NCBI GenBank assembly: GCA_043808325.1 | Contig: JAZDEY010000059.1 | Location: 61,753 to 125,752, forward strand | From: JAZDEY01 sp043808325 [NCBI: Candidatus Eiseniibacteriota bacterium] | GTDB taxonomy: Bacteria > Arandabacterota > Arandabacteria > Arandabacterales | DNA: 64,000 bases | Direction of reading: 5' to 3' | Shown: positions 24,373 to 32,047 of the stretch, piece by piece | Position numbering within the stretch: position 1 is the stretch's first letter | Layout: each line of letters begins with the position of its first letter | Made by a program: the position numbers and the translations under genes | Notes under the pieces: generated by a model | Seen by the model: only the letters and a program-made list of their open reading frames with translations | The model's database searches: none | What the model was told of the DNA's origin: nothing

Positions 24373-24906
24373 TCATGAGACCACTCTCAGCCCCAGCCAG
24401 ATAAGAAAGCCAACGACTGATAGAAGCACCGCGGCCACACCGAGGCAACCAGACCGCCCGGGCTTTCTTGTGGTCTGCGGCGGGGCAGCGGTCGGAGAGG
24501 GAGATTCAAGCCTCACGTGAGCCTCCGGCGCCCATGATTCGGGATTCACAAGAGACTTGGTCACAACGCTGAACTTCATCCCATGTTGCCGACAGAAGGT
24601 GTCACCGGCTTTCAGTTTTCTGGAGGTGTTGGGATCTCCGAAGAGGTGCTCTCCCTTGACCTCCCGGATTTCCCTTTCCCCGCCCGCAATCTCAACGAGA
24701 AAGTCGGGCTTATAGTGTCCTTGTCCGCCCCACCATTTCCGATAGGGAATCTGTAAGCCGTGATGTCGTGTCCACTTCAAGACCAACGGGTCGCGGTCGA
24801 GCTCATCCATGTACTGGACTTCCCAGTACGAATCGAACCATTCCCCTGCCACGCCGCGCGTGCTCTTCTTCCAGCCTCTGGACCAGCCCTGACGGTATCG
24901 TCTCAT
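24373..24906 (-). CDS. TnsA-like PD-(D/E)XK nuclease with C-terminal membrane segment
   Basis: The last gene of the accessory cassette, 177 residues. The N-terminal two thirds match the TnsA N-terminal endonuclease fold: an early Glu in SYWEVQYMDEL near residue 28, GHYKPDFLVE near 63 with the catalytic Asp, and REIREVKGEHL near 81 with the E-x-K pair. It is a paralogue of the preceding gene. After a Pro/Thr/Ser-rich linker (about 135-150) comes a hydrophobic stretch CLGVAAVLLSVVGFLIWLGL near 153-172, then three residues. A nuclease tethered to the membrane by its tail would be unusual. ATG follows the upstream stop directly (TAAATG). It could serve as the nuclease of the adjacent helicase; that is inference. 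Confidence 0.75.
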   Translation of the reverse strand: MRRYRQGWSRGWKKSTRGVAGEWFDSYWEVQYMDELDRDPLVLKWTRHHGLQIPYRKWWGGQGHYKPDFLVEIAGGEREIREVKGEHLFGDPNTSRKLKAGDTFCRQHGMKFSVVTKSLVNPESWAPEAHVRLESPSPTAAPPQTTRKPGRSGCLGVAAVLLSVVGFLIWLGLRVVS

Positions 24907-25254
24907 TTAGTGCCGCCTGGCGATTACCTTAAAGACCATACCGCGCTTGCGGCAGAATTCCTCCCCCGCCGCAAGTTTCCGTTGGGTGTCCGCGTCAGCC
25001 AGCAAATGACCGCCCTTGACCTCGTGGAGTTCCTTTTGTCCGTCCTCTCGTTCGACGATAAAATCAGGTCTGTAGTGGCCTCGCTTCCCATCGGCCCTCA
25101 TGTACGGGATCCTCAGCGAACGGCAACGCTCCCAGCGTTTGACTGCCCGGTCAGAGTCGAGAAGCAGCATGTAGTCGCGTTCCCATGAGGAATCGTAGGG
25201 TTCGCTCTCCCGCGTCCCACGTTTGATATCGTGCAGCACGCCTTTCTTGCTCAT
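24907..25254 (-). CDS. TnsA-like PD-(D/E)XK nuclease
   Basis: A 115-residue single-domain nuclease of the TnsA N-terminal type. Visible active-site elements are the Glu of SSWERDYMLLLDSD near residue 24, GHYRPDFIVE near 61, and KELHEVKGGHLL near 73. The end GEEFCRKRGMVFKVI is shared with the following gene (GDTFCRQHGMKFSVV), so the two arose by duplication. ATG at 25254 overlaps the helicase stop by four bases (ATGA). The helicase next door lacks a recognisable nuclease domain, so this protein probably cuts DNA in trans as part of the same complex. Other possibilities are a transposon-type nuclease or a Vsr-like repair enzyme. Confidence 0.8.
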   Translation of the reverse strand: MSKKGVLHDIKRGTRESEPYDSSWERDYMLLLDSDRAVKRWERCRSLRIPYMRADGKRGHYRPDFIVEREDGQKELHEVKGGHLLADADTQRKLAAGEEFCRKRGMVFKVIARRH

Positions 25255-27395
25255 GTTTCCGGCGGCCTGGCGAGGATCGCTTTCAGCAGTTCGCGCCGGT
25301 CGAAGACCCGGCGCACATAGTGCAGGGTGTCTTGCAGGAAAAGCAGTTGCGATTCCGTTTCGCATTGCCCTATGGTCTGGCCACCAAGGAACTTATCGCT
25401 GATATGAGTCAGCAGTACCCTGTACATGACGGCCCGCCCGCTCATCGGCAGGCCGTTATTGAATAGGACTTCCACAGTCAAATCAAATAGTTGATCGCAC
25501 AGCTCCTTCTGCCGCTCGCCAACGGGTATGGTCTCCTTCGGGGGAACAAACTCCGCCGCTACCTGCTTTTCGGTTTCCGAATACGCCACCGTCGTCACAA
25601 AACCTGTCCCGGTAAGATCGCGCTCACTCTCACCCACTCGTTCCTCGCGCGTCACCGCGACTTGTTCCCGGGGGTACCGAGCGTCGGCAAGATATTCGGT
25701 CCAGTCCTGCCCCAAGGGTTTCTCATCGAGTCCTTCGGGCTCAGGCAGTTCGATTTCTTCACCCTCGTCCTGCGGTTCGGGAATCTCGATTTCGTCTTTT
25801 GAGAGGTCTATCTCCTCTGGTCCTCTAAGGCCTTCATCGAGGTCAAGTTCATCTTGAAGGCCGACATCCGTTTTCACGTAGGCGTCAATCATCTGCCAAA
25901 GCCATTCGTGGTCCAGTTTGGGGTGGTCAACTACGATCAGCCGTTCTTTCTCATCACGCTTGCATGGGAACACGCGCCGGAGCCCGCGTCCGATGACCTG
26001 TTGCCCGTATACCTTCGACGAGAACTTGCGGAGCAGGGCAATCACGGAAACCGGCTTTACGTCCCAACCCTCGCGCAACATAAGCACGCTCACGACCGCG
26101 CTATGTCGTTCCTTGTCGGCGTCCGTGCCGATAGTCATGGCGACTTCGAGCTCCGTTTTCCGCTGCTCCGGGCTGATGTCCGTCTCTTCCTCGTCCTTCG
26201 AGGCAATAACGAAGGTCTTAAGGCCGAGTTCCTCTTCAAGAACACGCTTCGCGTTATACGCATCCTTGATGCTCACCGCCACGACAAACAGAATGGGTCG
26301 GTAATGGCCGCCCTCTTGTCTTTGATGGCGCCGCCATTTCGCCTGCCCGCCGAGTTTCATACTTTCCGCCGATCCGACAATCTTGCCACCGGCCCGCTTG
26401 ACCTGCTCAATCCAGCGGCGCTTTGCCATTTCCAACTGTTGGCGCAAGGGCTTGGGGCTCGTGACCCACTTGGTCGCAGGAATTTGCTTCGCGTCGATTT
26501 CTTCCCACGGCACTTCCTCTACTCGGGCAATCTGGCCGGTCTCCGTGTCCGTGTAGGTGAGTTCCACCGTCTTGATGTTCGGCTGACATACGTAAACCGT
26601 CTTTATGATCCCGTCTTTGACCGCCTCCTTGATTCCGTAAAAGCAGATCATCCGGCTTCGCGGACTTTCACCGTCCGCGCGATCGGGCGTCGCGGTCGTG
26701 TCCACGCGCATGACCGTCTTGCCGGACTGCGATAACAGGTCAAGAATCTCGTCGTACTTCGGCGCGACTGTGTTGTGGGCTTCATCGTTGAACACTGCAA
26801 TCCGGCCAAGGTGATTCAGGATCACACCGAGATTTTCTGCCCCTTGTGTGCTCGACGGGTAAAGCTGGTGGATGTTGCCTAGCGTCACCGCTGCGCTTCG
26901 AATTCCCGCACTTCCGGCCCCCGGCTGAAGCACATGCAGGGTCATGTCATGCACGTAGTGCGCGAACTCGGGCGGAAACAGGTTGAACCGCCGCCAAACG
27001 GAATCGTCGCGGCTCGGTTTCTCGAAGTCGGTCTTCAACCGCTCGCGCACAATGGTATTGGGCGACAACAGCAGGAAAGATCGGACCTCGTGACAAACCC
27101 GCAGATAGGCCATGATCGCGGCAATGATCGTTGTCTTGCCTCCGCCCGTGACGACGTTGGGGAGCAGATCTTTCCATCCGGCATCGTGGGGCTTCAAGAT
27201 CTCATTGACGAAGATCGAACGGAGAATGGCATCGCGCTGGTGCGGCCATAGGGTCTGATACTTCCCCGCCGGGGATTCGACGGCAAGATGCAGAAGATAG
27301 TCCCGCACTCGGTCGGGCACCGCCGGGGTCCGGAACGAATCGGCAAGCCAACCCCTGTAAGCTCTCAGTGTTTCGCCATAGAACGAGTTGAACAT
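25251..27395 (-). CDS. Type III restriction Res-like SF2 helicase, nuclease domain absent
   Basis: 714 residues with the ATPase core of type III restriction subunits: QHRDAI-type Q-motif region WPHQRDAILRSI near 50, Walker A VVTGGGKTTI near 82-90, FLLLSPNTIVRERL near 107, DEAH box VFNDEAHN at 201-208, TATPDR near 234, motif V LREGWDVK near 440 and motif VI QQVIGRGLRRVF near 465. A strongly acidic segment (about 505-550) leads to a C-terminal region of about 150 residues that shows no PD...E-x-K. Typical Res proteins are 900-1000 residues with the nuclease at the C-terminus, so this one appears shortened, with two separate nucleases encoded immediately downstream. ATG at 27395, three bases after the radical SAM gene. 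Confidence 0.88.
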   Translation of the reverse strand: MFNSFYGETLRAYRGWLADSFRTPAVPDRVRDYLLHLAVESPAGKYQTLWPHQRDAILRSIFVNEILKPHDAGWKDLLPNVVTGGGKTTIIAAIMAYLRVCHEVRSFLLLSPNTIVRERLKTDFEKPSRDDSVWRRFNLFPPEFAHYVHDMTLHVLQPGAGSAGIRSAAVTLGNIHQLYPSSTQGAENLGVILNHLGRIAVFNDEAHNTVAPKYDEILDLLSQSGKTVMRVDTTATPDRADGESPRSRMICFYGIKEAVKDGIIKTVYVCQPNIKTVELTYTDTETGQIARVEEVPWEEIDAKQIPATKWVTSPKPLRQQLEMAKRRWIEQVKRAGGKIVGSAESMKLGGQAKWRRHQRQEGGHYRPILFVVAVSIKDAYNAKRVLEEELGLKTFVIASKDEEETDISPEQRKTELEVAMTIGTDADKERHSAVVSVLMLREGWDVKPVSVIALLRKFSSKVYGQQVIGRGLRRVFPCKRDEKERLIVVDHPKLDHEWLWQMIDAYVKTDVGLQDELDLDEGLRGPEEIDLSKDEIEIPEPQDEGEEIELPEPEGLDEKPLGQDWTEYLADARYPREQVAVTREERVGESERDLTGTGFVTTVAYSETEKQVAAEFVPPKETIPVGERQKELCDQLFDLTVEVLFNNGLPMSGRAVMYRVLLTHISDKFLGGQTIGQCETESQLLFLQDTLHYVRRVFDRRELLKAILARPPET

Positions 27396-27398
27396 GGG

Positions 27399-28526
27399 CT
27401 ATCCCAAGCAATTACAGCAAAGACCCGCGCCACCCAGGCCCGTGCTTTTCCAGACCTCTCGATGCTCCTTACAGAGCGCGATCTTCACGTTCCGATCACG
27501 CTTCCGAATGGCACCAACAATCGCCCTGAACATCATGAGTCTTGTTTTCTTCGGGTAACGCAGTTTCCCAGCTTCAGCAATCAGGCTTCCGTTGATTCTG
27601 ATGAGCCGCGTATCTGGGAACCGTTCCTCAATGTGCCGGATCAGGCCCGCCGCTGGTCTGTACTCGCCAATCGTGATACGCGATGGCGTCACAAAGGCGA
27701 ATATCTGATCAACCAACTCCGGGTAGTCCTTACGCCAGCTCGAGTACTCGAAAACCGGGTCTATCCGGAGCCGGACTTCATATCCCGCTTCCTGGACTTG
27801 TTGTGCAGCCTGCAGGCGAGCGGTCGGCGTTGGCGTTCTGTGCTCGAGATGCTGATGCACCTTTGCCGTGTTTACACTGAAGGAGATGATCGTGCGGCCT
27901 CCATGCTTCAAGTCCAGCAGGTTGCGCACACAATCGCTTTTCGTCACGAAGAGGAGTCTCACGCCAGGAGCGTGGAGTGGAACAAAGGGAACGATCTGCC
28001 TGCTGAACCCGGTAATGTCGTCCACGGCCAGAGGATCGCCAAGCTCCCCAAGATTCAGCACCCGCAACGCCGGAGACACCCGTGATCTCCCGAATGCCTC
28101 GATTTCTGCGAGCACGCGATCATAATTTACGAAATGCGTTGAAACTGGCGCGTTACGGAAGGTCAGATAAAGGTAGCAGTATTCGCAGGAGAAATTGCAG
28201 TTGTTGTAGGCCGAGAGCTTGTAGAACTTCGCACAGCTCCCGAGCGGGTGCTGGAATTGGTCAATGAATGGACTCTTTCGATCGCGCAATAGCAACACAT
28301 TCCTCTGGCTCTCTAAGGCAGCGGCTCCGCTACGCCCATTCCCGTTCGGCAGAGATCTGACCCATTTCAGCGGTAGCCCCGACTCCTCGGCAATCCGCCG
28401 CACTTGACCACGATCGGCTCCTCCCGCCAATGCCCACAATTCCTGCACAAGCGGATGCGATTGTCCTCGTGTCACCATTGCACGCCTTGTAATCACAGGC
28501 TTTACGTCTGACCGCGGAGTTGTCAC
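27399..28526 (-). CDS. Radical SAM protein, spore photoproduct lyase-like
   Basis: 375 residues. The SAM-cluster motif is C-x3-C-x2-C in YNNCNFSCEYCYLYL at 110-117, followed by LNLGELGDPLAVDDITGFS near 157, LLFVTKSDCVRNLL near 190, SFSVNTAKVHQHLEHRTP near 213 and RLRIDPVFEYSSWRKDY near 253, all as in the SPL family that contains spore photoproduct lyase. The C-terminus ends in a cysteine cluster (GLCCNCLG). SPL reverses thymine photodimers; relatives outside spore formers have unproven functions. The GTG start overlaps the TcmP stop by four bases (GTGA). Placed inside a restriction-type operon beside TcmP, it may modify or repair DNA or tRNA; this is inference. Confidence 0.82.
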   Translation of the reverse strand: MTTPRSDVKPVITRRAMVTRGQSHPLVQELWALAGGADRGQVRRIAEESGLPLKWVRSLPNGNGRSGAAALESQRNVLLLRDRKSPFIDQFQHPLGSCAKFYKLSAYNNCNFSCEYCYLYLTFRNAPVSTHFVNYDRVLAEIEAFGRSRVSPALRVLNLGELGDPLAVDDITGFSRQIVPFVPLHAPGVRLLFVTKSDCVRNLLDLKHGGRTIISFSVNTAKVHQHLEHRTPTPTARLQAAQQVQEAGYEVRLRIDPVFEYSSWRKDYPELVDQIFAFVTPSRITIGEYRPAAGLIRHIEERFPDTRLIRINGSLIAEAGKLRYPKKTRLMMFRAIVGAIRKRDRNVKIALCKEHREVWKSTGLGGAGLCCNCLG

Positions 28527-29344
28527 GTTCTGCTCCTGTACTTGTTGAAGATGTCCCCCACAATCTCTTGGGCAACCGGTTGGTGAGACGCAAAGAAGAG
28601 GTAATACAGTTCTCCGCCCTTGGTGTTCCTCATCAGAATCGGCTCAGGGACAAACTCGAAACGTGCAACATCGCACAACCGCTCTCGAAAGGCTATCGCC
28701 AACGATCGATTCGTCCCAACCTTGCCGAGCTCACCGAACAAGTCAGTTTGATACATTCTGCTCTTCCAGTCTTCGCCACCCCAGAACTCCGTGAACGCCA
28801 CAATATCTGGCATCGCGACGGAGTCTAAGTGCTTCCGAAGTGTGTTGCGGTTGATGTCCATGAGCGGGAAATTTAGGAACATATCGAACGTCCGAGCCTG
28901 GGCGATTCGCTGGATTGTCGGCCATCGTAGCGTCTTGCCGTGAATCCCGTATGGATCAAGCACGCACAAGGCCCGGCGATATGATTCGTACTGCAAGGTC
29001 GGCAAGACCACGGAGAGTAGCACTTCGTTGCAGTCACCTGTCTTAACCTCAACTCGACTGTCACTGCCACAGATCTCGTGCAGTGACTCAACCTTCCTCG
29101 AGTCCACGTCAATCAGCACGATCCGGTCGAAAGGTGGTTGCACGTAGAGTGCATTCAGGGGAGATCCAGGGATCATCTTGCCGGTGGCCTTGGAAACGTG
29201 GATCCCGGCACCCGCAAAGGCATCCACATAGGTCAAGCCCCTGCACCACGTCTTCGCCTTGAGCAGGCGAGTATATGCGCTAGCATATTCGTTAAGAATC
29301 GCCAGTTTGATCTCCGACCAAACGCCTACCTCATCCAACTTCAC
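28523..29344 (-). CDS. tcmP: Three-Cys-motif partner protein, TcmP-like
   Basis: 273 residues resembling TcmP, a family named for occurring beside proteins with a three-cysteine (radical-SAM-like) motif. The order of motifs looks like a Rossmann methyltransferase-type fold: YVDAFAGAGIHV near residue 39-50, PGSPLNAL near 59-66, VLIDVDSRKVESL near 77, GDCNEVL near 102 and CVLDPYGIHGKTLRW near 127, where the DPYG corresponds in position to the catalytic DPPY of amino-methyltransferases. The C-terminal YYLFFASHQPVAQEIVGDIFNKY is typical. GTG at 29344 with GGAGA upstream; eight bases separate it from the methyltransferase gene. The radical SAM gene next door fits the expected partner. Its biochemical role is not known to me. 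Confidence 0.82.
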   Translation of the reverse strand: MKLDEVGVWSEIKLAILNEYASAYTRLLKAKTWCRGLTYVDAFAGAGIHVSKATGKMIPGSPLNALYVQPPFDRIVLIDVDSRKVESLHEICGSDSRVEVKTGDCNEVLLSVVLPTLQYESYRRALCVLDPYGIHGKTLRWPTIQRIAQARTFDMFLNFPLMDINRNTLRKHLDSVAMPDIVAFTEFWGGEDWKSRMYQTDLFGELGKVGTNRSLAIAFRERLCDVARFEFVPEPILMRNTKGGELYYLFFASHQPVAQEIVGDIFNKYRSRT

Positions 29345-29352
29345 GGGCTCTC

Positions 29353-31494
29353 CTATTCAATCTTCAGCTTCATGGCCTTCATGCCTTCGCCGCCGAGGTC
29401 GTCTTGGACCCGGCAGGCGATGGTGGCCTCCGTTGCCGGCGCGACGTCCTCGAAGGTGTATTCAACCGTCACGTCGCCTTCGAAACCGCTCTCACCTTTG
29501 CCTTTCCGCTCCTTCCGGCAAAGTTGGTAGCCTTGCGTCGCGGAGAAGATGCCGTCTCGGTAGTCAAAGTCCCATTGCACGTTTACGATCGCGCCGCCGG
29601 TGTTCATCGAGCGGGCTTCTGATACGTCGAACCGGTAACTCAATGCGCCAAGTCGAGTGACCCCGATACGCGGAATGTCGGGTGGTAGGATGAACATGAA
29701 GAAATCCTGATACTTGTTGTGTTTCCTGGTCACGTGCGCCTTGAACTCGTCCCCGGCCAGTGGCCACAGGCGCAGCTTAATGAACTGAATTGGCCTTGAC
29801 TCGCCCAGGTCAGTAACCCGCTCGGCATAGGATCTGGCCTTCGGGTCAACGCCCCACCCAATCATGGTTGCCTGACGTTCCTCCGGCTTCCGACTTTTCA
29901 TCACGGCCTGCGCAAAGAGCCTGACGTCACCTGCCGTAATCAAATCGATTTCCTTCGGACCGGCGACCCAAAGCAGTTCATTTGCCTTCACCCCGTGAAT
30001 ATTCCCATCAGCCCCGGTCCACTTGCGAGCGCCGTAGCAGGCCAGCACGAAAGCCCGGAACTCCTCGGCAGACAGTTTTGTCAACCCGTTGATTTCGTAA
30101 ATGCCCCAGTGTTCCACCGTGTAGCCGGTCAACGGCATAGGCGAATCTTCTATGGTCTTCTTCTTCGACTCCTCAACACTGGTCAGTGTCCTGTCTTCGA
30201 TGACGTCACCGAAATCCAATTCGCTTGCTGACTTTTCCTTCTTGGCCTTCTTCGCTGCCCGTTTCATATCCTGCAGGTTCGGCGCGAGAATCCGGGCAAT
30301 CCGGTCCGCCGTCAGCGCCACAGCGACGCGGGAGATGTCGCAACCGATCCAACAGCGCCCGAGTTTCTGCGCCACCGCCATAGTGGTCCCGCCCCCCGAG
30401 AAGAAGTCAGCGACGACATCCCCCTTGGCACTCGACGCCTCTATAATCCGTTGCAGTAGCCCTTCCGATTTCTGAGTTGGATACCCGATCCCTTCCTTGG
30501 TCCAAGAGACAACGTATTGGACTGCCTTGTCAGGCCAGATACTTTGCGCTGGCATCCCAGGCATCTCATCAAGGTACCTCTTCAACCGCGGGAAGTTATT
30601 CTTCGTCCAGAACACCTTCCCTTGCTTGTCGAGCTCATCCAGTCTTTCGCGCGGGAATCTCCAAGGGCGCTTGATTCCTCGCCAGATGTACTCAGGATTT
30701 ACCCCAGTGTGCCCGACCAAGTCGCCGGACATAAACCTGCGACCGTCTGGGTCTTTGTACCTGTAGTATTGGTCAATGTACTCTTGCTCATAGGGAACAT
30801 ATTGTGTGTTGAAAGGCGTTTTCGGGCCGTTTCGATAGAACAGGATCGTCTGGTGAATTGAACCATAGGTTCTGTTATTCGCGTGTGCCGATGTAGATTT
30901 CCAGATGATCTCTGTATCAAAATTGTCATATCCGAAAATCCGATCCATCTCGCACTTTACGTAGTGCACTGCGTGCCAGTCGAGGTGCACGTAGATACTA
31001 CCGCTCGGTTTGAGCAACCGTTTCATCTCGTACAGGCGGGCGTTAAGCCAGATGAGATAGCCGGGCATGCCACCTTCCCAGATGTCGGTGAAGGACCGGA
31101 CTTCGTTCTTGTCGCCGAAGATGATGTTGTAGTTCCGGCCGGAGAAGAACGGCGGGTCAATGTAGATCAGGTCAACGCACTCGCTCGGCAGCATCCGCAT
31201 CACGTGCAGGCAGTCGCCGAAGAAAAGCCGGTTCAGACCGTTGGGGAAAAGCTCGTCGCGCTTGTAACGTCGCTTGACGCCGGTTTCCACCGTATCCACC
31301 AATTGAAACGGCAATTCGATCCGCGGGTAGTGCTGCTCGAACCGCCGCTCGTGGTCATACCCCAGCGGCTCTTCCGCCACCGGCACATGTCCAAATCGCG
31401 CAGGGATCTTGAAGAAAGCCTTCTGCTCCGGCAGACCTATTGCGCCGTAATTCCCACGTGGCTCCTCGACCTGCATTTCGTCCTTCTCGTTCAT
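29353..31494 (-). CDS. Type III-like DNA methyltransferase (Mod), beta class
   Basis: 713 residues. The catalytic motif YIDPPFFSGRNYN (IV) at 111-123 precedes the SAM-binding motif VADFFSGGGTT (I) at 361-371, the order of beta-class N6-adenine or N4-cytosine methyltransferases and of type III Mod proteins; the GDCLHVMRMLP start near 93 and YPTQKSEGLLQRII near 338 are typical. Residues 125-335 hold the target-recognition region. A long C-terminal extension of about 330 residues (LTGYTVEHWGIYEINGLTKLS and later beta-rich parts) is common in Mod proteins of helicase-linked systems. ATG at 31494 overlaps the stop of the ORF6N gene (ATGA). It probably protects host DNA at the site attacked by the helicase/nuclease genes downstream. 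Confidence 0.9.
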   Translation of the reverse strand: MNEKDEMQVEEPRGNYGAIGLPEQKAFFKIPARFGHVPVAEEPLGYDHERRFEQHYPRIELPFQLVDTVETGVKRRYKRDELFPNGLNRLFFGDCLHVMRMLPSECVDLIYIDPPFFSGRNYNIIFGDKNEVRSFTDIWEGGMPGYLIWLNARLYEMKRLLKPSGSIYVHLDWHAVHYVKCEMDRIFGYDNFDTEIIWKSTSAHANNRTYGSIHQTILFYRNGPKTPFNTQYVPYEQEYIDQYYRYKDPDGRRFMSGDLVGHTGVNPEYIWRGIKRPWRFPRERLDELDKQGKVFWTKNNFPRLKRYLDEMPGMPAQSIWPDKAVQYVVSWTKEGIGYPTQKSEGLLQRIIEASSAKGDVVADFFSGGGTTMAVAQKLGRCWIGCDISRVAVALTADRIARILAPNLQDMKRAAKKAKKEKSASELDFGDVIEDRTLTSVEESKKKTIEDSPMPLTGYTVEHWGIYEINGLTKLSAEEFRAFVLACYGARKWTGADGNIHGVKANELLWVAGPKEIDLITAGDVRLFAQAVMKSRKPEERQATMIGWGVDPKARSYAERVTDLGESRPIQFIKLRLWPLAGDEFKAHVTRKHNKYQDFFMFILPPDIPRIGVTRLGALSYRFDVSEARSMNTGGAIVNVQWDFDYRDGIFSATQGYQLCRKERKGKGESGFEGDVTVEYTFEDVAPATEATIACRVQDDLGGEGMKAMKLKIE

Positions 31495-31895
31495 CCCTGC
31501 CGCCCCCTTCGACCCGTGCGGAATGCGGCCCGCGCTTCCTTGACCCGATTCCCCGCTTCGGGCTTCGAATCGGAGGCACTGAACCCAATCTGTTTCCTGG
31601 GCGGTTGGGGCAGGGCAGGCGGGTCAATAATCTCCATGATTCGCTGCAACCGGATAGGCTTATCGTTTGAGGTCACAATTTGTGACCTCAAAGCCGCAAC
31701 CTCTTGCAGCGTAAGCCGAAAGATGAAATCCGCAGGGAACTTCTTCCGGTTGCGTTTGACTGCCTGATTCAATGCCTTGGTGGGCACTCCGTAGATGCGG
31801 GCAAGATCCGCGTCCAAGATCACTTTCTGTCCGCGTACGGTGACGATCTGAGCCAAAGGATCATCGAGCGAATGGACCACGCCTTTCCCAGTCAC
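31491..31895 (-). CDS. ORF6N (KilA-N related) DNA-binding domain protein
   Basis: 134 residues. The ORF6N domain spans about residues 14-90: VTVRGQKVILDADLARIYGVPTKALNQAVKRN, then RKKFPADFIFRLTLQEVAALRSQIVTSND. The domain is found in phage antirepressors and in putative regulators next to restriction systems. The C-terminal 45 residues are Pro- and basic-rich and look disordered. The GTG at 31895 has GGAGG nine bases upstream and overlaps the stop of the small ORF before it (GTGA). As the second gene of the cassette it may control its expression. Confidence 0.8.
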   Translation of the reverse strand: MTGKGVVHSLDDPLAQIVTVRGQKVILDADLARIYGVPTKALNQAVKRNRKKFPADFIFRLTLQEVAALRSQIVTSNDKPIRLQRIMEIIDPPALPQPPRKQIGFSASDSKPEAGNRVKEARAAFRTGRRGRQG

Positions 31896-32047
31896 GGCGC
31901 TTGCCCTCCTTGACTCCGGCGGAGAATCTCCCCGACAAACGCCAGCACTGAAACACCCAGGAATGCTGCCTTCGCCAGCAAGTGTTGTCGAACGGCCGCC
32001 AACACGTCCGGGCGCATCTTCGCTTGCGTTATCTTGGCTCTTGTCAT
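31892..32047 (-). CDS. Small 51-residue protein heading the accessory cassette
   Basis: A short frame upstream of the ORF6N gene: ATG at 32047, GGGG about eight bases upstream, and a TGA that overlaps the following GTG start by four bases. The product begins MTRAKITQAKMRPDVLAAV, has a hydrophobic segment AAFLGVSVLAFVGEIL near residues 27-42 and a basic tail. It could be a single-pass membrane peptide. I recognise no family. The GTGA junction, like those between the other genes of the cassette, is the main reason to believe it is translated. Confidence 0.6.
   Translation of the reverse strand: MTRAKITQAKMRPDVLAAVRQHLLAKAAFLGVSVLAFVGEILRRSQGGQAP

What the first reader, a model, noticed from the sequence alone, without database searches (positions are those of the whole stretch)
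24373..32047. Eight-gene, fully coupled cassette: a split type III-like restriction system carrying a TcmP/radical-SAM pair
Seen in the sequence: a 51-aa ORF, ORF6N protein, beta-class Mod methyltransferase, TcmP-like protein, SPL-like radical SAM enzyme, Res-like helicase and two TnsA-like nucleases run in one direction with junctions of GTGA, ATGA, 8 nt, GTGA, 3 nt, ATGA and TAAATG. Established: Mod plus Res-type helicase form type III restriction systems, and TcmP occurs with three-Cys-motif proteins. Inference: the whole operon is one defence system in which the methyltransferase marks self DNA, helicase and trans-acting nucleases attack, and TcmP/radical SAM add a second modification or repair step. 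I know of no described system with this gene set.
Basis: partly seen in the sequence, partly recalled or inferred. Interest (0 to 1): 0.92.

Follow-up and report, generated by a model that had tools for sequence, protein, structure and literature searches.

The report
Restriction operon with swappable cargo slot
A bacterial DNA-cutting defence operon carries, between its marking gene and its cutting genes, a pair of enzymes of unknown chemistry; a close relative of the operon carries different genes at exactly that place, so the pair looks like exchangeable cargo rather than an essential part of the machine.

Summary
The eight-gene, tightly coupled cassette is real. It is best read as two modules in one operon. 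Chassis: split type III-like restriction-modification (Mod, Res-type helicase without nuclease, separate TnsA-like nucleases). Cargo, between the mod stop and the res start: TcmP plus a spore-photoproduct-lyase-like (SPL) radical SAM protein. One relative (L202) has the same chassis (helicase 86%, Mod 74%, nuclease 68% identical), a different recognition region, and other cargo in the slot (AAA ATPase, Schlafen-AlbA_2 protein) with a 107-nt relic of the res start. The SPL-type pair recurs with other R-M types: an R-M methylase lies within 8 kb in 11 of 14 genomes. In 80 TcmP loci, 76 have a radical-SAM-type neighbour; in the other four the contig ends. TcmP resembles the rRNA adenine-N6 methylase RlmJ; the radical SAM protein lacks the SPL catalytic cysteine. 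TcmP with DUF5131 is already PADLOC candidate PDC-M41; the SPL-type copies tested have no PADLOC match. The pair's substrate and role are unknown.

The parts
31892..32047 (-). 51-aa ORF, first of the run; no family match; coding status unproven
31491..31895 (-). ORF6N-domain protein, 134 aa (GTG start overlapping the previous stop); probable DNA-binding regulator (inference)
   Evidence: PF10543 3e-24; PADLOC PDC-S05 3.6e-26
29353..31494 (-). Mod: beta-class N6/N4 DNA methyltransferase, 713 aa, recognition region about residues 200-330
   Evidence: PF01555 5.8e-43; 74.5% to L202 Mod over 660 aligned residues but 24-39% in residues 201-320
28523..29344 (-). TcmP, 273 aa: RlmJ-like class I methyltransferase fold, motifs YVDAFAGAG and DPYG
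   Evidence: TIGR04474 172.5 bits; PDC-M41A 1.8e-47; AF2 pLDDT 93.2; RlmJ Z 14.9, 215 residues, 3.5 A
27399..28526 (-). SPL-like radical SAM protein, 375 aa: CxxxCxxC at C110/C114/C117; SPL catalytic Cys position is E161; further conserved C98, C352, C371, C373
   Evidence: PF20903 1.1e-28; residue table
25251..27395 (-). Res-type superfamily 2 helicase, 714 aa, without its own nuclease domain
   Evidence: PF04851 5.3e-12; 86% to L202
24907..25254 (-). TnsA-like nuclease 1, 115 aa, E...PDF...EVKG pattern present; L202 has only one TnsA-like gene
   Evidence: PF08722 1.7e-12; alignment
24373..24906 (-). TnsA-like nuclease 2, 177 aa, same pattern, hydrophobic C-terminal tail (also in the L202 protein)
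   Evidence: PF08722 5.5e-11; 46% to nuclease 1; sequences
27396..29352 (-). Cargo slot: nucleotide homology to L202 ends two bases past the mod stop and resumes one base before the res start
   Evidence: slot comparison

Best explanation
Two modules share one operon. (1) A split type III-like restriction-modification chassis: Mod methylates a site chosen by its exchangeable recognition region; the Res-type helicase, with separately encoded TnsA-like nucleases in place of the usual fused nuclease, cuts DNA that lacks the mark. (2) A swappable cargo in the slot between the mod stop and the res start: TcmP, an RlmJ-like SAM-dependent amino-methyltransferase, acting with an SPL-like radical SAM enzyme as a two-enzyme base-modification module. 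The cargo is co-expressed with the R-M genes and most likely gives an independent or reinforcing layer of defence rather than an obligate step of restriction. Shown: gene order, families, the slot, other cargo in one relative, recurrent pairing. Inferred: cutting, co-expression, that the pair modifies a nucleic acid, and that it defends.
For: Slot with clean borders, other cargo and a 107-nt res relic (93 of 107 identical to the res start) in L202. Chassis under purifying selection (Res dN 0.08, dS 1.9, so dS near saturation) with a swapped recognition region. The L202 genome has no TcmP match. Helicase plus free TnsA-like gene recur in L204, L205 and L201. The same radical SAM family has an R-M methylase within 8 kb in 11 of 14 genomes: 9 Eco57I, 1 Mod/Res, 1 HsdM/HsdR; a 12th has an Eco57I-like fragment; chance of 9 or more Eco57I within 8.5 kb about 1e-14 under even spacing. 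Radical SAM tree does not follow the chassis. A radical-SAM-type gene lies within 1.5 kb of TcmP in 76 of 80 loci. TcmP fold and motifs. [quoted passage not shown]
Against: No activity is shown. Only one near chassis relative was found: 5 of 245 genomes had helicase matches, one at 86% and the rest at 32-47%; 1 of 246 (43%); 0 of 132 and 0 of 297 at a stricter limit. So 'swappable' rests on one pair of operons plus other R-M types. Even spacing is too easy a null, as R-M genes cluster in islands; no control with other defence genes was run. RlmJ acts on rRNA, so the substrate may be RNA. 57 of 63 DUF5131-type loci show no same-strand R-M gene with my six seed families (54 of 63 on either strand; many contigs short). 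The radical SAM model is poor (pLDDT 61.2). Glu at position 161 is also present in one of three SPL-family controls.
Confidence: 0.6

Rival explanations
1. One integrated system: TcmP and the radical SAM enzyme add a second modification that the helicase-nuclease complex reads, so that all genes are needed.
For: Tight coupling including 4-nt overlaps; SPL-type pairs have same-strand R-M genes within 6 kb more often than DUF5131-type ones (6 of 8 against 6 of 63, Fisher p 0.00015); the pair sits inside the operon, and a DUF5131 pair sits inside a type I operon in L112.
Against: L202 chassis has other cargo and no TcmP match in its genome; the pair joins unrelated R-M types and the radical SAM tree does not follow the chassis.
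Confidence: 0.17
2. The pair is an RNA modifier: TcmP methylates an adenine in tRNA or rRNA and the radical SAM enzyme makes a second change, blocking phage translation or marking the ribosome; it only shares the operon.
For: Best structural matches of TcmP are RlmJ (23S rRNA A2030 N6) and Trm1 (tRNA), Z 14.4-14.9; TcmP pairs also occur without detected R-M genes.
Against: The radical SAM partner is of the SPL family, whose known member acts on DNA (recalled); a shared methyltransferase fold does not give the substrate.
Confidence: 0.13
3. The radical SAM enzyme, with TcmP, removes bulky or hypermodified bases from phage DNA (SPL-like bond cleavage) so that the R-M nuclease can cut it.
For: SPL homology that extends to the N-terminal region; frequent company of R-M genes.
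Against: No direct evidence; Glu161 stands at the hydrogen-donating Cys of SPL; the methyltransferase partner is unexplained.
Confidence: 0.05
4. Chance neighbours in a decaying defence island.
For: The radical SAM family is rare: 7 of 297 and 3 of 245 genomes, query genomes included.
Against: Open frames, conserved motifs, recurrent association above the even-spacing expectation.
Confidence: 0.03
5. DNA repair: the radical SAM enzyme repairs spore photoproduct-like lesions.
For: PF20903 SPL match 1.1e-28.
Against: The SPL catalytic Cys is Glu in 15 of 15 family members (but also in one of three SPL-family controls, the Deinococcus protein), and four further conserved Cys are absent from the three controls; 131.8 bits against the SPL equivalog cut-off of 400.
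Confidence: 0.02

Closest known systems
Type III restriction-modification (Mod/Res, e.g. EcoP15I)
   Same: Beta-class Mod with variable recognition region; Res-type helicase encoded in the same operon
   Different: Res lacks a nuclease domain; nucleases are separate TnsA-like proteins, two in this operon; two foreign genes between mod and res
BPTD_3080 family restriction endonuclease (NF046055)
   Same: The helicase and the TnsA-like nucleases match different pieces of this profile; longer Res proteins with a TnsA-like C-terminus are in L024, L139, L124 and L096
   Different: 72 bits against a cut-off of 800; here split into helicase and nucleases
PDC-M41 / PDC-M30 (PADLOC candidates: TcmP + DUF5131)
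   Same: TcmP is PDC-M41A (1.8e-47); a radical-SAM-type partner follows; embedding in immune operons
   Different: Partner is SPL-like: no PADLOC match at 0.001 for the L089 and L096 copies; only weak viperin and DUF1848 hits (0.0037-0.028) for the window copy
DarTG2 embedded in a type I R-M operon (RptR island, PMC12255303)
   Same: A second defence module inside an R-M operon, with a small regulator as first gene (passages)
   Different: Cargo and R-M type unrelated; activity there is tested, here not
RlmJ, 23S rRNA A2030-N6 methyltransferase
   Same: Whole-length fold match of TcmP, Z 14.9, 19% identity; Foldseek TM about 0.5
   Different: TcmP has DPYG where RlmJ has a DPPY-type motif (RlmJ motif recalled); substrate unknown

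Membership tests
Type III restriction-modification | Beta-class Mod methyltransferase with recognition domain | tested here: met
   PF01555 5.8e-43; divergent central region between the window and L202
Type III restriction-modification | Res-type helicase encoded with Mod | tested here: met
   PF04851 5.3e-12; same operon, same strand
Type III restriction-modification | Nuclease domain fused to the Res C-terminus | tested here: not met
   P0006 has no nuclease match at E 0.1; TnsA-like nucleases are separate genes
Type III restriction-modification | ATP-dependent cleavage requiring Mod and Res and two inversely oriented sites | not testable with these tools
   needs biochemistry
BPTD_3080 restriction endonuclease (NF046055) | Whole-protein score above the curated cut-off | tested here: not met
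   72.2 bits against 800
TcmP (TIGR04474) | Score above the curated cut-off | tested here: met
   172.5 bits against 53
PDC-M41 (TcmP + DUF5131) | TcmP component (PDC-M41A) | tested here: met
   1.8e-47
PDC-M41 (TcmP + DUF5131) | DUF5131 component (PDC-M41B) | tested here: not met
   P0005 has no DUF5131 or PDC-M41B match at E 0.1; partner is SPL-like
Spore photoproduct lyase | SPL domain and CxxxCxxC | tested here: met
   PF20903 100.6 bits against 27; C110, C114, C117
Spore photoproduct lyase | Catalytic hydrogen-donor Cys (role recalled) | tested here: not met
   E161 aligns with the Cys of B. velezensis SplB in 15 of 15 family members; the Deinococcus SPL-family control also has Glu
Spore photoproduct lyase | Equivalog score TIGR04070 | tested here: not met
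   131.8 bits against 400

The most novel reading that the evidence does not exclude
TcmP and the SPL-like radical SAM enzyme write a base modification other than plain methylation (radical chemistry plus N-methylation, perhaps with a second iron-sulfur cluster on C98/C352/C371/C373) on DNA, giving R-M operons of several types an exchangeable second self mark or anti-phage mark: a radical-SAM-made DNA modification used in bacterial defence.
Probability: 0.2. Interest if true: 0.88.

Novelty: new variant of a known kind. Interest (0 to 1): 0.58.

Why it matters
It shows a gene-precise cargo slot inside a type III-like R-M operon, with two different loads seen in two near relatives, and a radical SAM / methyltransferase pair found with unrelated R-M types. 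TcmP pairs were already listed as unexplained defence candidates; the SPL-type version, usually beside R-M genes, gives a sharper handle: a short list of candidate catalytic residues, a chassis with and without this cargo, and a direct nucleoside assay could reveal a new nucleic-acid modification used in immunity.

Tried and rejected
Led nowhere: single-protein scans of viral contigs for P0006, P0005, P0003 confirmed no relative; SPL alignment A1 in viral contigs gave six distant relatives (23-38%). P0006 found nothing at 1e-60 in 132 and 297 genomes; the tool warns that such an empty answer shows nothing. Solved-structure sequence searches gave nothing for TcmP, P0006 and P0007. No direct repeat typical of tRNA integration was seen among the 20 of 25 repeat families shown: the repeats shared by 22254 and 32253/32413 are the tRNA genes themselves. 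The promoter scan was at shuffle level (4 found, mean 3.5). The radical SAM model was too poor for a fold search, so the second cluster rests on residue conservation alone.

Considered and rejected: accidental grouping; spore photoproduct repair; full type III membership (fused nuclease not met). The ORF picker showed no partner for the TcmP of L023; six-frame search found DUF5131 directly after it.

Literature: searches (open-licence PMC only, no bioRxiv). Nothing that I saw in their listings assigns a function to TcmP; of the 40 listed of 214 papers, two hold 'three-Cys-motif partner'. From PMC12988326, PMC12445080 and PMC12255303 I saw only find passages, and PMC13092281 had no hit for five terms. 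The Payne et al. 2024 preprint was seen only as a citation.

Rows left out of counts: the Fisher test leaves out the divergent L140, four loci with other radical SAM partners and four cut off after TcmP. The 14-genome count takes one main locus per genome and leaves out partial second copies in G003, G005 and G007, weaker matches, and the divergent G015, whose bases are still in the density. The distances and the figures 9, 14, 32 and 44.5 Mb were read by me and entered by hand. One search kept the best 80 of 358 relatives.

Full report
Observation. Seven of eight proteins match curated families; the 51-aa ORF matches nothing. No whole genome is held for the window. Twenty other window ORFs were scanned with Pfam: those nearest are a DNA polymerase III gamma/tau-type gene and a malic enzyme on one side; on the other are two tRNA-Ser genes and a short ORF that I read as a probable tadA. 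None of the twenty is an integrase, and no integration repeat was seen.

Anatomy of the chassis. Mod is a beta-class N6/N4 methyltransferase. The helicase P0006 matches ResIII but no nuclease family. P0007 and P0008 (46% identical) are TnsA-like; both keep the E...PDF...EVKG pattern and align with the C-terminal part of longer Res proteins in L024, L139, L096 and L124. In NCBIfam terms the helicase and the nucleases match different pieces of one profile, NF046055, so what is usually one protein is split here. A Mod-helicase run followed by a gene with a similar nuclease-like pattern also exists on a Citricoccus plasmid, and helicase plus free TnsA-like gene occur in L204, L205 and L201. P0008 ends in a hydrophobic tail, also present in its L202 counterpart, which may anchor it to the membrane (inference; no predictor was run).

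The slot. P0006 was searched in 245 genomes of the phylum of L095's genome (L095 is titled Nitrospirae): five had matches, one of them, G495, at 86%. Its locus L202 has the same order Mod - slot - helicase - TnsA2, with Mod 74.5%, helicase 86.0% and nuclease 68.2% identical over aligned residues. Nucleotide homology ends two bases past the mod stop and resumes one base before the res start. In the window the slot holds TcmP and the radical SAM gene; in L202 it holds a 408-aa AAA-type ATPase and a Schlafen AlbA_2 / HATPase protein. Between those two lies a 107-nt copy of the res 5' end, 93 of 107 bases identical, covering the first 35 codons of Res: most simply the mark of an insertion at the start of res. 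The L202 genome has no TcmP match; of four other genomes with more distant helicase relatives, one has a TcmP, on another contig. L202 has one TnsA-like gene, and no match to ORF6N or the 51-aa ORF was found there. Its flanks differ from the window's. The two Mods are 62-98% identical in 40-residue steps outside residues 1-40 (55%) and 201-320 (24-39%), the expected place of the recognition region, and the chassis genes change mostly at silent positions. So the chassis looks functional, changes its recognition region, and carries other cargo.

The cargo elsewhere. An alignment of TcmP relatives gave 80 loci, the best of 358. A radical-SAM-type gene lies within 1.5 kb of TcmP in 76 of 80: DUF5131 in 63, the SPL-type family in 8, another radical SAM type in 4, and a divergent SPL-like one in L140; in the other four the contig ends within 96 nt. 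Counting DUF5131 as radical-SAM-type rests on recall and on L092 and L136 partners that match both PF04055 and, weakly, DUF5131. The SPL-type pairs most like the window's (67%) are in L089 and L090, between an Eco57I methylase and a PLD-SNF2 helicase. Searching with the SPL-type alignment gave 7 of 297 genomes in one phylum and 3 of 245 in another, query genomes included. Over 14 genomes with the family, an Eco57I methylase lies within 8 kb in 9, Mod/Res in 1 (L096), HsdM/HsdR in 1 (L099), an Eco57I-like fragment in 1 (L187); in the last 2 none was found: L093 ends about 0.6 kb after the gene (10 kb upstream without R-M seeds), L189 ends 1.8 kb upstream of it. With 32 Eco57I hits in about 44.5 Mb, 9 of 14 within 8.5 kb has a probability near 1e-14 under even spacing; R-M genes cluster, so this null is too easy, and no control with other defence genes was run. 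For DUF5131-type pairs, 6 of 63 had same-strand R-M seeds within 6 kb (9 of 63 on either strand; 4 of the 21 with 5 kb of sequence on both sides), so that type is not tied to R-M. On two plasmids such pairs stand among other genes; one stretch has a DNA methyltransferase at its very edge. Even so, several DUF5131 pairs lie inside R-M operons: Res-TcmP-DUF5131-Mod in L139 and L024, HsdR-TcmP-DUF5131-HsdM-(probable HsdS) in L112 (the HsdS label is inferred from its place).

Modularity. In a tree of 16 radical SAM proteins the window's groups with the Eco57I-associated ones (98/100), not with the other Mod/Res-associated one, L096; holding those two together is rejected (p-AU 0.00016). The window's end branch is long, which the tool flags as a caution.

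What the pair might do. The TcmP model is confident (pLDDT 93.2, 46 sequences). D129, P130, Y131 and the FxGxG loop are invariant in the 46 aligned sequences (numbered without the first residue). The radical SAM protein is homologous to spore photoproduct lyase, but the catalytic Cys of SPL is Glu in 15 of 15 family members; that Glu is also in one of three SPL-family controls, from Deinococcus. Four further cysteines (C98, C352, C371, C373) are invariant wherever the sequence is complete (C98 15 of 15, the others 14 of 14), are also in L140, and are absent from all three controls. That suggests a second iron-sulfur site and chemistry other than photoproduct repair (inference). A radical SAM enzyme of a family known for acting on DNA (recalled) next to an adenine-type methyltransferase fold points to base modification; whether in DNA or RNA is open.

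Comparison with the known. PADLOC lists TcmP as PDC-M41A and DUF5131 as PDC-M41B/PDC-M30B. PADLOC's candidate systems are described as coming from a guilt-by-embedding study, known to me here only through citing papers (PMC12988326 and PMC12255303 passages). The SPL-type copies of L089 and L096 match no PADLOC model at 0.001. Embedding of one defence system in another operon is established: PMC12255303 reports DarTG2 between hsdS and hsdR and calls the site a potential recombination hotspot (passages). PMC12445080 lists TcmP (SMa2243) next to the Hna helicase (SMa2245) in an expression table (passage). The window cassette is thus a new variant of a known kind: a split type III-like R-M operon with a clean slot, carrying a new-partner version of a known candidate pair.

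Verdict. The single-system reading is weaker than a two-module reading. The function of the pair is unknown and directly testable.

Noticed in passing
L202:7234-7340 (minus strand): 107-nt relic of the res 5' end between two cargo genes, most simply explained by an insertion at the start of res.
   Followed up: yes
L023:2532-9525: In a viral-collection contig, a Druantia DruE-like protein is followed directly by TcmP and DUF5131.
   Followed up: partly
L185:9603-11895 and L186:8497-10741: The SPL-type radical SAM gene is preceded by a longer TcmP-like protein; the L186 copy matches PDC-M30A, so the family may pair with a second TcmP kind.
   Followed up: partly
L140:9989-15239: TcmP plus a divergent SPL-like radical SAM protein directly upstream of a 1110-aa protein that looks like a DnaE polymerase (my reading); no R-M seed match within 6 kb.
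   Followed up: no
L204:400-3908; L203:965-4094: Split helicase (with a TnsA-like gene in L204) preceded in L204 by a ClpP-like SDH-type protease gene and in L203 by a similar-looking ORF: perhaps a separate small system.
   Followed up: no
L124:10001-17634: Between Mod and Res lie two small genes (102 and 125 aa) that look like a nucleotidyltransferase/HEPN toxin-antitoxin pair (my reading): another load in the same interval.
   Followed up: no
L183:2552-9019: A 2155-aa NACHT-type ATPase between an Eco57I methylase and the SPL-type radical SAM gene, with no TcmP found in that stretch.
   Followed up: partly
window 24373-24460 (minus strand): Hydrophobic C-terminal tail of the second TnsA-like nuclease, also in the L202 protein: possible membrane anchor.
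   Followed up: no
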